Position numbers and translations under genes: made by a program. A stretch of 64,000 nucleotides of DNA from assembly GCF_900188125.1 (NCBI RefSeq), contig NZ_FZOW01000010.1, positions 1-64,000 on the forward strand. Direction: 5' to 3'. Numbering within the stretch: position 1 is the stretch's first letter; the number at the start of each line of letters is the position of its first letter. Source of the stretch: Rhodococcoides kyotonense (GTDB lineage: Bacteria > Actinomycetota > Actinomycetes > Mycobacteriales > Mycobacteriaceae). A model generated the notes under the pieces. It did not search any database. It saw only the letters and a program-made list of their open reading frames with translations, and was not told the DNA's origin. Below are positions 28,292-51,224 of the stretch, one piece after another.

Positions 28292-28300
28292 TTGTCCACA
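28292..28300 (+). promoter_or_regulatory. DnaA-box-like site upstream of crgA
   Basis: TTGTCCACA matches the actinobacterial DnaA-box form and lies 45 nt before the crgA start. A weaker CGTCCACA is at 28271-28278. Both point opposite to the four boxes downstream. Confidence 0.5.
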
Positions 28301-28344: not shown

Positions 28345-28608
28345 ATGCCCAAATCGAAGGTTCGCAAGAAGAAGGACTACTCCATCGCGCCCGGGACACG
28401 TACTCCCGGAGCCGTGAAAGCGGGTCCGTCGAGCACCCTCTACGTGTCGGTGATGCTGGGATTCATGCTGGTAGGGCTCTTGTGGCTGCTGGTGTACTAC
28501 TTGGCAGCCGACGACCTCGCATGGATGAACGCGCTCGGTGCCTGGAACTTCCTGATCGGTTTCGGCTTCATGGTCGTCGGACTCGTCATGACCATGAGAT
28601 GGCGATGA
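28345..28608 (+). CDS. crgA: Cell division protein CrgA
   Basis: An 87-residue protein with a basic cytoplasmic head ([12 protein letters not shown]) and two membrane helices (about 32-52 and 66-84) separated by a short loop with [13 protein letters not shown]. This is the standard CrgA architecture; CrgA interacts with FtsZ, FtsQ, FtsI and PBPs and helps place or stabilise the divisome. GAAGAGG lies 8 nt before the ATG. The next gene follows by 45 nt and begins inside a pair of DnaA boxes. Confidence 0.94.
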
Positions 28609-28653
28609 TCCCGACCCCTTCATCCCAAGTTACACACATGTCATTCATCAACA

Positions 28654-29136
28654 ATGTGGATAACTTCTGTGGATAACTTCGAAAACGATCCACAGGATGT
28701 GCACAACCTGTCGTGGGCGACGCCGATCAGCGCGGTGGTCGCGCTGGCCGTTGGCGGATTAGCGCTGGTCACCGTCGCGTTCGTCACAGACGTCGATCCG
28801 GCGGGCCGATTTCTCGTGACGGCAGCGGCGCTGGGCCTGTGGATAATTTCGGGATCGGCGGCTTTTCAGCGTCCCAGGCTGTGGATAAACGATGGATCGT
28901 TGTCGATGAAGCGGCTGACCGGCGTTCGCACGTACCGTCCCGACGAGATCAAACGCGTCAAGCTCGTCCGTTACCCGCGGCTCGGCCGTCGCGTTCCCAT
29001 GCTCGAACTCGACGTCCAACGAGCAGGCGATGACGACGACCGACTCGTCATCTTCGGTCGCTGGGACCTCGGAACCAACCCACAGGACGCGTACGACGCC
29101 CTCGAGCGACACGGGTTGGTCCCACCCGGACGCTGA
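28654..29136 (+). CDS. PH-like domain membrane protein
   Basis: A 160-residue protein (155 if it starts at GTG 28669). Two hydrophobic helices span about 23-43 and 52-69, followed by a bacterial PH-like domain with RLWINDGSLSMKRL, the YRPDEIKRVKLV strand and a C-terminal helix (NPQDAYDALERHGL). This matches the membrane protein next to crgA in mycobacteria (Rv0010c type), of unknown biochemical role. All three ATA codons in the gene fall inside DnaA-box sequences, whereas its other Ile codons are ATC or ATT. No good ribosome-binding site precedes either start. Confidence 0.85.
   Translation: MWITSVDNFENDPQDVHNLSWATPISAVVALAVGGLALVTVAFVTDVDPAGRFLVTAAALGLWIISGSAAFQRPRLWINDGSLSMKRLTGVRTYRPDEIKRVKLVRYPRLGRRVPMLELDVQRAGDDDDRLVIFGRWDLGTNPQDAYDALERHGLVPPGR
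28655..28888 (-). promoter_or_regulatory. Cluster of four perfect DnaA boxes outside oriC
   Basis: TTATCCACA on the minus strand (TGTGGATAA on the plus strand) occurs at 28655-28663, 28668-28676, 28838-28846 and 28880-28888, all in one orientation. The first pair has a 13-nt repeat distance, the second pair 42 nt. They lie in and at the start of the PH-protein gene, 20 kb from the dnaA-linked boxes. Confidence 0.75.
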
Positions 29137-30268: not shown

Positions 30269-31168
30269 CTAGATCCCCATCTGGGCACGAATATCGAGGA
30301 TCCGGAGTGCGATGACCGCCAACGCGACGACGGCAACCGCAGCGACACCCACCCACGCCAGCCGAGGTGAACGCGTCGGGCTGGGGAGAAAGACGATGGC
30401 AGCGGTCGCGGCAGCGCCGGCGACCAAACCACCCATGTGACCCCACAGCGAGATTCCGGGGATCGAGATGCTGATGACGATGTTCACGCCGATGATGACC
30501 AGAACGGGCGTCGGGCTGCGCTTCAAACGCAGCAGTACGACGGCCTGAGCACCCAGAAGACCGAAGATCGCGCCCGACGCACCCACCGTGACGGCTCCGG
30601 GTGACTCGAGGACCAACACCGAAGCGCTGCCGCCGAGCAGTGAGACCGCGTAGACGGCGACGTATCGCGCCTTGCCCAGGACCGCCTCGAGATCCCTGCC
30701 GATGATGTACAGGGCGAACATGTTGACGAGCAGGTGAATCGGGCCGTAATGCAGGAACCCGCTGCCGATCACGCGCTGTACGTCGCCGGTGGCGACCAAC
30801 GGAGAGTAGAGCGCCCAGTCCTGGAACAACGCGGAATTGCGAGTGTTCTCCAACAACGAGCTGGACTGCGCAGCCGTCACCGCGAACGCCAGGACGTTGA
30901 GTCCCATGATGATGTACGTGACCAAGCCGTACCTCGACGAAGCAGGCGCGCCGACGACGGTTCGCACCTGTGCAGTCGATCTGTTGGCCGCCTGAATGCA
31001 CTCGAGGCAGTGCTGCCCGACCGACGCGGGCCGGAGACACTCGGGGCATGCGGGCCTGCCGCACCGCGAGCACGCGAGACCGGTGGGCCGGTCGGGGTGC
31101 CGGATGCACCTCGACTGAGGTGGGGTGGGCTGATCGCCGGGCGCGCCACCCCAGCCGGGGTTCGTCAT
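30269..31168 (-). CDS. Rhomboid family intramembrane serine protease with N-terminal zinc-binding motif
   Basis: A 299-residue membrane protease. Residues 21-60 hold a Cys/His-rich B-box-like zinc motif (CIRHPDRPTGLACSRCGRP, then CPECLRP and HCLECI). Six or seven membrane helices follow from residue about 82. The catalytic Ser is in GASGAIFGLLG near 196 and the catalytic His in WGHMGGLVAG near 245; HLLVNMFALY is the helix-2 HxxxN region. Rhomboids cut membrane helices of substrate proteins; the substrate here is unknown. It is convergent with the XRE gene and lies 31 nt downstream of ppiA. Confidence 0.94.
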   Translation of the reverse strand: MTNPGWGGAPGDQPTPPQSRCIRHPDRPTGLACSRCGRPACPECLRPASVGQHCLECIQAANRSTAQVRTVVGAPASSRYGLVTYIIMGLNVLAFAVTAAQSSSLLENTRNSALFQDWALYSPLVATGDVQRVIGSGFLHYGPIHLLVNMFALYIIGRDLEAVLGKARYVAVYAVSLLGGSASVLVLESPGAVTVGASGAIFGLLGAQAVVLLRLKRSPTPVLVIIGVNIVISISIPGISLWGHMGGLVAGAAATAAIVFLPSPTRSPRLAWVGVAAVAVVALAVIALRILDIRAQMGI

Positions 31169-31805: not shown

Positions 31806-32189
31806 ATGACCAGCACATCGAAGTCGACTCGGATCCGCGACGTCGCCGTAGGCGCGGGTGGAAATCTGCTGCAGGCTGCAAAGGTCTTCGGCACCGGCAC
31901 GGCGGGCATCAGCGTCACGCTGGCCTCGAAGGGTTACTCGCTCGCCCGCCAGGAACTCGAGCGACGCAAGAAGGCTCAGAAGCGCAAAGCACGTTCGACG
32001 CCGCGCATCTCCCGCCGGACCAGACGAGTCATCGTCTTCGGAACGTTGTTCGGAGCAGCTGCAGGCGCCGCCGTGATCGCGACGAAGCGCCGTAGAACCA
32101 CCCAGCCTCCCGCTGACGCACCCCCGAGTCTGGCCGATTACGCCGACGAGACACCCCGGACCTCGGTGACCGAAGCACCTCAGGTCTGA
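31806..32189 (+). CDS. cwsA: Cell wall synthesis and shape protein CwsA
   Basis: A 127-residue protein next to ppiA, in the position of mycobacterial CwsA, which interacts with CrgA and Wag31 to support polar growth and shape. The long N-terminal part is amphipathic and basic (VGAGGNLLQAAKVFGTG, then RQELERRKKAQKRKARS), and one membrane helix follows near residues 77-94 (VIVFGTLFGAAAGAAVIA) with a short Pro/Thr-rich tail. Family assignment rests on size, layout and position. Its last 10 nt overlap the end of the DUF1023 gene on the other strand. Confidence 0.8.
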   Translation: MTSTSKSTRIRDVAVGAGGNLLQAAKVFGTGTAGISVTLASKGYSLARQELERRKKAQKRKARSTPRISRRTRRVIVFGTLFGAAAGAAVIATKRRRTTQPPADAPPSLADYADETPRTSVTEAPQV

Positions 32190-33757
32190 CCCAGGCCGGC
32201 CACCACTCGGGCGATCGCGTCCTGCGTGGTGGTCCCCTCGGCGAAGTACTGACCGTGCCCGTCGGGCGCACGTAAGTCTCCCGCCGCCGCCGTCGGGAGC
32301 GTACGGACGCCGTCGAGTTCGCTGGGATCGGTACCGAACGCACCGAGATCGGCGACGACGTCGTTCCGCGCTTCGCCGACGAAGACGTGGCCTGCCGGGA
32401 CGGACAGTTCGTGCACCGTGCCGACGCCGAGCCCGGGCGACCCGACTGCAACGAGTTCGTCGACGCCGGTGGCCTCCGCGTCGCGCACGGCATGCGCAGC
32501 CGTCAGCGATCCGTACGAATGGCCCAGAAGCGACAGATGTGGGTCCGTGCGTCGTGACGCGTCGAGTCCGTCGAGAAACACGCTCAACCGAGCGGCACCC
32601 GTGACCGCTGCGGTAGCGCCGACGACGGATCGGTTCGGGTCCAGCAGACTCCACCCGGTATGAGGCGCCGCGTAGTCCATCCACGTGACGACCGCGACGC
32701 CGTCCTCCTTCGGAACAGACTGCTGCACAAGTTCTTTCAGGGAGTCCATGTCGCCGTCGTACCGTCGCATGTCACCCTGCACGTCGGAATCCAGCCCAGG
32801 AACGAACACCGCGACATGAGTCGCGGTGTCGACGTTGCCCACCGCGATGGCCGCCAACGTGTCGTCCGCGCTGTGATTGTCGAGAACCAGAAGCTGTCGG
32901 TCTCCCTGCGCCAAGGTCTCGGAAATGGCGTCGAGCGCAGCCAATCTCTTCTCCGTCTGAGCCAGACCCGCATCTGCGTTGTCGAACATTCCACCGAAGA
33001 TGTTGTCGTCCAGCCGTTTTCGAAGCTCGACCGCGACTCCCTGCAGACGCGTCCGCTCGAGCGTCAACACACGCCGGTTCGCGGCGTCCCTAATCTGAGC
33101 CGGGATTCCGTCGAGGCCGCCCAGCAGGTCGGGCCGCTGGACGAGTAGCGCGGTGCGCTGCGCCTGAGTCGACGCATCCCAGAAGGCGGCATTCGCAGCG
33201 GGGCTTCCCGACGTCGGCACCTCCACCGCCGCCGGACGCATCGGCCGAGGTTCGACTTCGGACTGCAGCAATGCCTCTGCTGTGTGCCGATCGAGATCAT
33301 CTGCACGAGAAAGCAATTCGCGTGCACGCTGTTCGATGTCCCGTCGGCAGCGGAGTCGATCTCGTGCAATACTCCAGGCATCCACCGCGGCACTCGCATA
33401 GACCGGGATCCCGTCCCTGACCGTGGCGTCGTCCTCGATCGTCATGGACCACTCGTTCGCCCGACCCTCGCACGCCTGCACTGCATGGACGAGGGGATAC
33501 ATGTCCCGTGTCGCGGCGTACACACACCGACCGATGTCGTCGAGCACCCGTGCACGATCGAGGAATTCGCTCTGCACTCCGGACAGGGACGTTCGCGCCG
33601 CGTCGGCAGCCGTCCCATGCCAGTCGAGTTGCTCGAGCAGAACCGTCACGTCGTCGATCCGGCCGGTCAGGATGCGAGACTGCGCACGCACCCGATGTGC
33701 GAGCACACTCAGATCTGCCGGATCCCACCGTTGAACGTCCCCCCAGGACATCGACAT
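32180..33757 (-). CDS. DUF1023 alpha/beta hydrolase with WXG100-like N-terminus
   Basis: A 525-residue protein. The first 90 residues are helical and contain WHG at 46-48 in a helix-turn-helix like WXG100/ESX proteins (VTVLLEQLDWHGTAADAA). A further helical stretch leads to a DUF1023 alpha/beta-hydrolase domain (about 290-520) with nucleophile elbow LLGHSYGSLTAAHA near 412 and a His in DGHGQYFAEG near 500. No signal peptide. The fold combination suggests a protein linked to type VII secretion, with unknown substrate. Start at ATG 33757 follows GGGGGCG; an alternative ATG lies two codons on. Confidence 0.85.
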   Translation of the reverse strand: MSMSWGDVQRWDPADLSVLAHRVRAQSRILTGRIDDVTVLLEQLDWHGTAADAARTSLSGVQSEFLDRARVLDDIGRCVYAATRDMYPLVHAVQACEGRANEWSMTIEDDATVRDGIPVYASAAVDAWSIARDRLRCRRDIEQRARELLSRADDLDRHTAEALLQSEVEPRPMRPAAVEVPTSGSPAANAAFWDASTQAQRTALLVQRPDLLGGLDGIPAQIRDAANRRVLTLERTRLQGVAVELRKRLDDNIFGGMFDNADAGLAQTEKRLAALDAISETLAQGDRQLLVLDNHSADDTLAAIAVGNVDTATHVAVFVPGLDSDVQGDMRRYDGDMDSLKELVQQSVPKEDGVAVVTWMDYAAPHTGWSLLDPNRSVVGATAAVTGAARLSVFLDGLDASRRTDPHLSLLGHSYGSLTAAHAVRDAEATGVDELVAVGSPGLGVGTVHELSVPAGHVFVGEARNDVVADLGAFGTDPSELDGVRTLPTAAAGDLRAPDGHGQYFAEGTTTQDAIARVVAGLGQT

Positions 33758-33882
33758 ACTGCGCCCCCGTTGTCTCCGTGCGCCGATCGAGAGATCGGCG
33801 ATCTGCAGAGGATTCAACACCGAATGGCAGCAGAGCCTCGAAATTCATCCCCAGGCTGTGGATGAATTCTGTGGAGAACGGG

Positions 33883-50621: not shown

Positions 50622-51224
50622 GGTGCCTCCTATTCGAACAGTGTCTACAACGGCTGAATCCGATGATCTTTTTCCCACCCGCGTCACGTCGAATTCGGCT
50701 ATCGTCCCCTCATCACGACGTTCTTCGGGGGATCCACAGTCGAGCAGTGCACACGCGCCGGGTACGAATATGCCACTCGAGCCGTGTTTCCACACAATTA
50801 TCCACAGGTGTGGATTAACGACACCGTTGTTACCCCATCCGGAGCCGCCGGCGCTTTTTCGGGCTTTTCGATGGTTCTGACCAGCTGCGTTATGAGGATT
50901 CGCGAAACTCGAGTTATGGGACCGGCCTGTGAGTAACGCACGACACGGTCCGGGATGCGGTTATGCACACACCTTCGTCCCCATGGATGTGGATGAATTA
51001 CACGGTTGTAGTCCTCGAGGCGTAGATTCGACGAGTTTGACCACTGCGGGGTCGATCAGTACTCTCGAACAGTCACCCAAGGCGAGGTGGCCGATGCTTG
51101 CTGGCTGCATACAGTCTGTGTTCACTCGGATTCTCGCTCGGGGATGTAACCGGCGTTCGACCGAACCCGTTACCACCGTTGCCGACGCCCTCAGGGCGTC
51201 AATGATTTTCGAGGAGTGTTCACC
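50622..51224. promoter_or_regulatory. dnaA-rpmH intergenic region with DnaA boxes
   Basis: A 603-nt divergent region without a gene. It has a perfect TTATCCACA at 50798-50806 beside TGTGGATTA at 50809-50817, plus 8/9 matches at 50961-50969 (TTATGCACA) and 50988-50996 (TGTGGATGA). These can serve dnaA autoregulation and a second lobe of the origin. Promoters for dnaA and the rpmH operon must lie here. Confidence 0.7.

What the first reader, a model, noticed from the sequence alone, without database searches (positions are those of the whole stretch)
28655..28888. Four perfect DnaA boxes packed in and at the start of the PH-protein gene, 20 kb from oriC
Seen: TGTGGATAA four times within 234 bp, all in one orientation, more perfect copies than I found in either intergenic region beside dnaA. 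All three ATA (Ile) codons of the gene lie in these boxes, while other Ile codons are ATC or ATT, so the boxes seem kept at the expense of codon preference. Known precedents are DnaA-titration (datA) and reactivation (DARS) loci. I know of no such locus described beside crgA.
Basis: partly seen in the sequence, partly recalled or inferred. Interest (0 to 1): 0.75.

Follow-up and report, generated by a model that had tools for sequence, protein, structure and literature searches.

The report
Conserved DnaA-binding element beside crgA
Beside a cell-division gene close to the replication origin, this bacterium carries a cluster of binding sites for the replication starter protein DnaA; a similar cluster sits beside the same gene in most actinobacterial genomes examined, which points to a shared and still unexplained control point for chromosome replication.

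Summary
In detail: four perfect TTATCCACA in 234 bp, of only 24 in the 6.31-Mb genome. The site is conserved, but its core is not the four boxes. It is a composite just downstream of crgA: a palindrome (TTACA-N4-TGTAA), a convergent DnaA box, then further boxes at fixed spacing. With up to 5 of 28 mismatches it is found in 132 of 139 family genomes and 89 of 131 genomes of other families of the class. DnaA boxes alone (up to 1 mismatch) lie within 250 bp of the crgA stop in 117 of 131. A rhomboid gene convergent to crgA lies within 1.5 kb in 82 of 131, so a promoter role cannot explain it in general. Boxes 3 and 4 occur only in near relatives.

The locus is not undescribed: Hicks 2020 (PMC7738170) found DnaA bound at the orthologous Rv0010c-Rv0011c gap (M. 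tuberculosis DNA in vitro, M. smegmatis in vivo) and saw no correspondence in other species. New here: depth of conservation, the palindrome, the convergent setting, the DARS-like box polarity. Best reading: an extra-origin site controlling DnaA activity; its biochemical step is unproven.

The parts
28630..28643 (+). palindrome TTACACACATGTCA (TTACA-N4-TGTAA, one mismatch), directly before the first DnaA box
   Evidence: the only TKACA-N4-TGTMA in the window; within 2 mismatches in 118 of 139 family and 84 of 131 class loci, control windows 5 of 1061 and 17 of 1765
28645..28653 (+). degenerate convergent DnaA box TCATCAACA (2 mismatches), one base before box 1
   Evidence: convergent pair conserved
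28655..28663 (-). DnaA box 1, TTATCCACA, perfect
   Evidence: family-wide
28668..28676 (-). DnaA box 2, TTATCCACA, perfect, 13 bp from box 1
   Evidence: family-wide
28698..28706 (-). weak DnaA box TTGTGCACA (1 mismatch)
   Evidence: varies among near relatives
28838..28846 (-). DnaA box 3, perfect, inside the PH gene; perfect in 12 of 32 genus loci examined
28880..28888 (-). DnaA box 4, perfect, inside the PH gene; perfect in 2 of 32 genus loci examined
28345..28608 (+). crgA, the gene beside which the element is found
   Evidence: Pfam CrgA PF06781, E 1.5e-34
28654..29136 (+). PH-domain membrane protein gene whose 5' end the boxes overlap
   Evidence: Pfam bPH_6 PF10756, E 2.8e-11
28292..28300 (+). 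further DnaA box TTGTCCACA on the other side of crgA; near relatives have boxes there too
30269..31168 (-). rhomboid gene; in 82 of 131 loci outside the family it lies within 1.5 kb of crgA and convergent to it
   Evidence: Pfam Rhomboid PF01694, E 1.6e-27

Best explanation
It is an extra-origin DnaA-binding control element, not a promoter feature of the PH gene. DnaA loads on a short array of fixed polarity and spacing (one convergent pair with a 1-2 bp gap, plus a same-direction neighbour 12-13 bp away), 9-124 kb from dnaA, next to a palindrome that either takes up a second protein or is itself a special DnaA site. The nucleoprotein complex most likely changes the activity or nucleotide state of DnaA, acting in trans on oriC; because it is copied soon after initiation, its dosage would report that initiation has happened. 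Among such roles I favour a DARS-like positive one (restoring active DnaA) over simple titration, because spacing and polarity are fixed and because mutations at the orthologous site copy dnaA mutations. Shown here: boxes, conservation, architecture, convergent setting. Shown by others: DnaA binding at the mycobacterial ortholog and the mutant phenotype. Inferred: action in trans, the DARS-like step, a partner protein. In this genome boxes 3 and 4 add binding capacity.
For: Genome-wide rarity and clustering. In 151 family genomes the exact tandem pair occurs 104 times: 53 at the PH gene, 38 on the same contig 0.85-55 kb away, 1 further off, 12 on other contigs or in genomes without the PH gene; 0 of the reversed control. 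In four of the 38 (G000, G140, G068, G074) dnaA coordinates put the pair beside or just before dnaA. Outside the family: perfect TTRTCCACA 0-250 bp after the crgA stop in 84 of 131 genomes (26 of 37 families), up to 1 mismatch in 117 of 131 (35 of 37), reversed control 2 and 29; in 120 loci with full flanks, 74 and 18 genomes have a perfect box in the two 150-bp bins after the stop and at most 2 in any of 18 other bins. Convergent pair: 118 of 139 and 100 of 131, control windows 3 of 1126 and 4 of 1144. Convergent rhomboid within 1.5 kb in 82 of 131; 74 of these have a box wholly between the two 3' ends. The PH gene follows crgA in only 4 of 131; in G017 and G043 it has moved away and the element stays at crgA. 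Hicks 2020: in vitro and in vivo DnaA binding, mutants lengthen cells like dnaA mutants, and neither flanking gene's expression changes in dnaA mutants.
Against: No binding or initiation assay here. Hicks reports an unchanged initiation rate together with longer cells, which does not fit a plain initiation regulator. Boxes near crgA are absent (0-250 bp, up to 1 mismatch) in 14 of 131 class genomes, including all of f2 and f4 (one genome each) and 6 of 10 of f26; G031 in the family has none. 5 of 10 Corynebacterium-like (g3) genomes have no perfect box within 1.5 kb downstream of crgA. The Streptomyces-like family f19 (10 genomes) and f17 (10) have boxes but not the composite. crgA is always near dnaA in the genomes checked, so linkage to the origin and to crgA cannot be separated. 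The DARS spacing is not met.
Confidence: 0.6

Rival explanations
1. DnaA titration (sink) site: the boxes simply hold DnaA away from oriC and double in number soon after initiation.
For: Perfect, presumably strong boxes near the origin; 4 of the genome's 24 exact copies; Corynebacterium-like G033 has 7 perfect boxes 159-534 bp after crgA and G002 has 5. Titration by the chromosome is shown in E. coli, with boxes enriched around oriC (PMC12371093, abstract and section 6). Recalled: deleting the D78 cluster raises initiation in Streptomyces.
Against: Fixed spacing and polarity and the palindrome are not needed for a sink; the ancestral core has only about three boxes. Loss should cause over-initiation, whereas Hicks reports an unchanged initiation rate.
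Confidence: 0.25
2. DnaA acts as a local transcription factor for the PH gene or crgA.
For: In this family the boxes lie at the 5' end of a codirectional gene and overlap its predicted start. PMC11205783 (passages) reports that HigA2 binds the Rv0010c 5' region, at what it calls the same site as the DnaA site, and that Rv0010c goes up in a higA2 mutant.
Against: Convergent setting in 82 of 131 loci outside the family (67 with a gap of 400 bp or less, counted from the listing); the PH gene follows in only 4 of 131; expression of Rv0010c and Rv0011c unchanged in dnaA mutants.
Confidence: 0.1
3. The inverted boxes are really an RNA hairpin, a two-way transcription terminator between convergent genes.
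For: Convergent setting; the head-to-head pair is an inverted repeat.
Against: The exact 9-mer is kept, not just complementarity: reversed and permuted 9-mers are not enriched. In the window and in most family genomes the well-kept pair is tandem, not inverted. DnaA binds the ortholog. No folding test was run.
Confidence: 0.03
4. A relic or spare origin: a former oriC half left beside crgA.
For: The same tandem spacing (12-13 bp) is seen at the dnaA side.
Against: Too short and without an obvious unwinding region; no test was run. Kept with fixed spacing across families, so not decaying.
Confidence: 0.02

Closest known systems
DnaA site in the Rv0010c-Rv0011c gap of M. tuberculosis / its M. 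smegmatis homolog (Hicks 2020, PMC7738170)
   Same: Same place between crgA and the PH-type gene; boxes in a palindromic cluster; this is the ortholog. By arithmetic from that paper (155-site gap, hot spot 65 bp upstream of the Rv0010c start) the published hot spot ends about 90 bp after crgA; in all 9 g29 (mycobacterium-like, my label) genomes examined the palindrome spans about +74 to +88 and its junction with the first box reaches +90.
   Different: The paper treats it as without obvious correspondence in other species and reads the palindrome as two DnaA-like boxes; here it is a wider family of elements with a palindrome that differs from the DnaA consensus. The M. tuberculosis sequence itself was not fetched.
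E. coli DARS1 and DARS2
   Same: Three-box core with one box opposite to the other two, head to head (PMC5742627 passages); same order of orientations as the family-type core.
   Different: Spacing: DARS offsets 14 and 12, here mainly 10 and 13. DARS2 uses IHF and Fis sites; here a palindrome of unknown ligand. Reactivation untested.
E. coli datA
   Same: Non-coding DnaA-box cluster outside oriC; in the window all four perfect boxes point one way.
   Different: datA's essential boxes all have the same direction and need IHF; the conserved core here contains a convergent box.
Bacillus subtilis DnaA-box clusters outside oriC
   Same: Clusters of DnaA boxes outside the origin (PMC13220808 passages, citing Okumura 2012).
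   Different: No shared gene neighbour or box layout was compared here.
Streptomyces coelicolor clusters H24, H69, D78 (Smulczyk-Krawczyszyn 2006, recalled; not in the held library)
   Same: Clusters near the origin that bind DnaA; the 10 f19 genomes (Streptomyces-like, my label) have perfect boxes at crgA. Whether H69 is this site is a guess.
   Different: f19 lacks the palindrome composite; the location of H69 could not be checked.

Membership tests
Rv0010c-Rv0011c DnaA site (ortholog) | lies between crgA and the PH-type gene | tested here: met
   Pfam CrgA and bPH_6 flank it; Rv0011c = crgA is recalled
Rv0010c-Rv0011c DnaA site (ortholog) | cluster of DnaA-box-like sequences including a palindrome | tested here: met
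Rv0010c-Rv0011c DnaA site (ortholog) | bound by DnaA | not testable with these tools
   published for mycobacteria only
DARS | three-box core, box I opposite to II and III | tested here: met
   convergent plus tandem layout in most loci; in the window the convergent box is degenerate, 2 mismatches
DARS | fixed DARS spacing (offsets 14 and 12 in E. coli) | tested here: not met
   measured in NC_000913; here mainly 10 and 13
DARS | ADP release from DnaA; IHF/Fis dependence (DARS2) | not testable with these tools
   biochemical
datA | essential boxes all in one direction | tested here: not met
   conserved convergent box in 118 of 139 and 100 of 131 loci
datA | DnaA-ATP hydrolysis with IHF | not testable with these tools
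   biochemical
DnaA-regulated promoter | boxes placed to control a flanking gene | tested here: not met
   convergent rhomboid in 82 of 131 loci, boxes between the 3' ends in 74; inside the family the geometry alone would allow it

The most novel reading that the evidence does not exclude
A two-part replication-control element that goes back to the early history of Actinomycetota: an unknown protein binds the palindrome and, together with DnaA held head to head on fixed boxes, resets DnaA activity, an actinobacterial answer to DARS/datA with its own partner. The published mutation hot spot at the mycobacterial ortholog would then be the partner's site rather than an ordinary DnaA box.
Probability: 0.3. 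Interest if true: 0.9.

Novelty: new variant of a known kind. Interest (0 to 1): 0.78.

Why it matters
How Actinobacteria set DnaA activity is poorly known. A short element with a fixed address (just after crgA) that can be deleted in laboratory strains makes the question directly testable, and it puts an isolated tuberculosis finding into a wide evolutionary frame. The palindrome also predicts a DNA-binding partner to look for.

Tried and rejected
Palindrome shared with the dnaA promoter: the window has a second palindrome-plus-box at 50998 in the rpmH-dnaA gap, but 0 of 20 dnaA upstream regions from other genomes has it, two of the same genus included; rejected as a general feature. Palindrome at the genome's other DnaA boxes: none (up to 1 mismatch) in the 15 regions that hold 18 other TTATCCACA copies. 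Exact tandem pair as a crgA-specific mark outside the family: 34 pairs in 27 of 148 class genomes, 9 of them at crgA by comparing coordinates, 1 control match, so not unique there. One named-genome scan gave a single locus, Rhodococcoides kyotonense. Searches for print: 'DnaA box'+cluster+crgA gave 1 paper, with one mention of each of DnaA box and crgA, unread; D78+H69 gave none; Rv0010c+Rv0011c+DnaA gave 3; DnaA-reactivating sequence in actinobacteria gave no relevant title among 15 listed; crgA with DnaA box, Streptomyces, intergenic and replication origin, at least 4 of 5 terms, gave 24 papers, 10 listed, none of these with crgA. The library lacks most subscription papers, so these are not proof of absence.

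Limits of the statistics: the composite score was set after seeing these sequences, so its counts are descriptive. Relatedness was handled only by counting genera and families. Column conservation is inflated for the palindrome, because loci were chosen by it. In one search I used only the 12 genomes with an intact box 3; the 6 other Trp-Ile genomes are given above. In one search the reversed 9-mer at up to 1 mismatch also peaks weakly after crgA (17 and 11 of 120 genomes), as expected for AT-richer gaps. Note 3 says at most 2 genomes 'elsewhere', which holds for perfect boxes only; note 4 omits G114 from the g3 genomes without a perfect box.

Full report
Observation. Four perfect TTATCCACA on the - strand at 28655, 28668, 28838 and 28880 are real. 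The genome has 24 in 6,308,867 bp, the reversed control 8. Codon remarks hold: ATA at codons 3, 64, 78 only, against 4 ATA in 100 Ile codons of six neighbours. The nearest named genome found is Rhodococcoides kyotonense KB10, 79% identical in the PH protein.

What is conserved in the family. The PH protein (Pfam bPH_6) was found in 139 of 151 genomes of the family, 29 of 31 genera. Near its aligned start (-100 to +70), 121 of 139 have a perfect TTRTCCACA and 136 a box with up to 1 mismatch; the reversed control gives 0 and 37. The three misses are G031, G017 and G043. G017 and G043 keep the element just after crgA although the PH gene lies about 1.4 kb away; G031 has none. The exact tandem pair was searched in all 151 genomes: 104 places, 53 at the PH gene, 38 on the same contig 0.85 to 55 kb away, 1 further, 12 on other contigs or in genomes without the PH gene; control 0. 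Two of those 12 (G002, G007) are themselves within 0.8 kb downstream of crgA.

Boxes 3 and 4. Of 32 genus loci examined (of 37 genomes in the genus), boxes 1 and 2 are both perfect in 28, box 3 in 12, box 4 in 2. So the in-gene boxes are a recent enlargement. Their synonymous constraint is suggestive: 11 of 11 Leu-Trp-Ile genomes use ATA; the neighbouring Ile65 is ATC in 7 and ATT in 5 of the 12 chosen genomes.

Beyond the family. CrgA (PF06781) was found in 141 of 148 class genomes; 10 are of the family, the other 131 (37 families) were read in full. Within 250 bp after the crgA stop 84 of 131 have a perfect box, 117 one with up to 1 mismatch, 104 at least two; reversed control 2, 29 and 4. 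The 14 misses are G152, G272, G205, G240, six of f26 and four of f27. In other classes of the phylum CrgA is rarer (48 of 100 genomes in a phylum draw, 9 of them in the class Actinomycetes, my name for it); of 21 loci obtained outside the class, 9 have a perfect box downstream and 9 the composite, one of these about 0.3 kb away.

Architecture. The commonest box pairs are tandem at 13 or 12 bp (74 and 29 family loci; 54 and 22 class loci) and convergent at 10 bp (15 and 40 loci at up to 1 mismatch per box). With up to 3 mismatches in the pair, convergent pairs at offset 9-12 are in 118 of 139 and 100 of 131, control windows 3 of 1126 and 4 of 1144. Before the first box lies TTACA-N4-TGTAA. In 206 loci with it, a + box starts at +15 in 126 and a - box at +38 in 131. 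The composite (up to 5 of 28 mismatches) is in 132 of 139 (26 of 29 genera) and 82 of 131, plus 7 loci in reverse, so 89 of 131 and 29 of 37 families; elsewhere in the same loci 3 on the same strand and 0 on the other in 280 kb, and 3 and 13 in 414 kb, the 13 including reversed copies in the gap; 0 of 5400 shuffled windows. The 10 f19 and 10 f17 genomes lack it though they have boxes. 5 of 10 Corynebacterium-like g3 genomes have 2 to 7 perfect boxes within 1.5 kb after crgA (G033 7, G002 5, G054 5, G101 4, G071 2); 5 have none.

Setting. A rhomboid-like frame lies within 1.5 kb on the opposite strand in 82 of 131 loci, 27 families; in 15 of these the gap exceeds 400 bp and may hold another gene. 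79 of 82 have a box with up to 1 mismatch in the first 260 bp, 74 a box wholly between the two 3' ends, 55 a perfect one. The rhomboid naming rests on Pfam for the window gene and one f19 gene and on a profile from 9 such frames. The PH gene follows crgA in 4 of 131. In 27 genomes where both genes lie on one contig without crossing its end, crgA is 9.1 to 123.8 kb from dnaA, median 33 kb; ten further genomes have them near opposite ends of a contig and were not measured.

Known biology. PMC7738170 (abstract, passages, section 10): DnaA of M. tuberculosis enriches five regions in vitro, Rv0010c-Rv0011c among them; ChIP-seq in M. smegmatis finds homologs of the same five; changes at the site lengthen cells like dnaA mutations; [quoted passage not shown] the authors leave titration or nucleotide exchange open and see no obvious correspondence elsewhere. 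Its hot spot, '65 bp upstream of the Rv0010c start' in a 155-site gap, falls by arithmetic at the edge of the palindrome as placed in nine mycobacterium-like genomes. The authors read that palindrome as two DnaA-like sequences; its arms do differ from the DnaA consensus, so a second ligand is possible but not shown. PMC11205783 (passages) names HigA2 as a binder there.

Mechanism and odds. Control of DnaA in trans 0.6 overall, with a DARS-like positive step my first choice within it; titration 0.25 as a separate rival. Polarity matches DARS, spacing does not. The positions taken for DARS1 and DARS2 in NC_000913 were recognised from recalled gene neighbours and from the equal 14/12 spacing.

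Noticed in passing
window 33857-33878: Two one-mismatch DnaA boxes 13 bp apart on the - strand, just upstream of an alpha/beta hydrolase gene (32180-33820, -); same spacing as the crgA element.
   Followed up: no
window 50988-51011: A palindrome of the crgA-element type with a DnaA box at the same distance lies in the rpmH-dnaA gap; absent from 20 other dnaA upstream regions.
   Followed up: yes
   Followed up: no
L344 (G033), L339 (G002), L346 (G054), L338 (G101): Corynebacterium-like genomes with 4 to 7 perfect DnaA boxes within 1.1 kb downstream of crgA, without the palindrome composite.
   Followed up: partly
window 28292-28300 and near relatives: DnaA boxes also on the other side of crgA in this genus, e.g. 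an exact tandem pair in G116 850 bp from the PH match.
   Followed up: no
L355 (own genome C24:155155-155176): Two perfect convergent boxes 13 bp apart in a gap upstream of a recR-like frame (name recalled).
   Followed up: no
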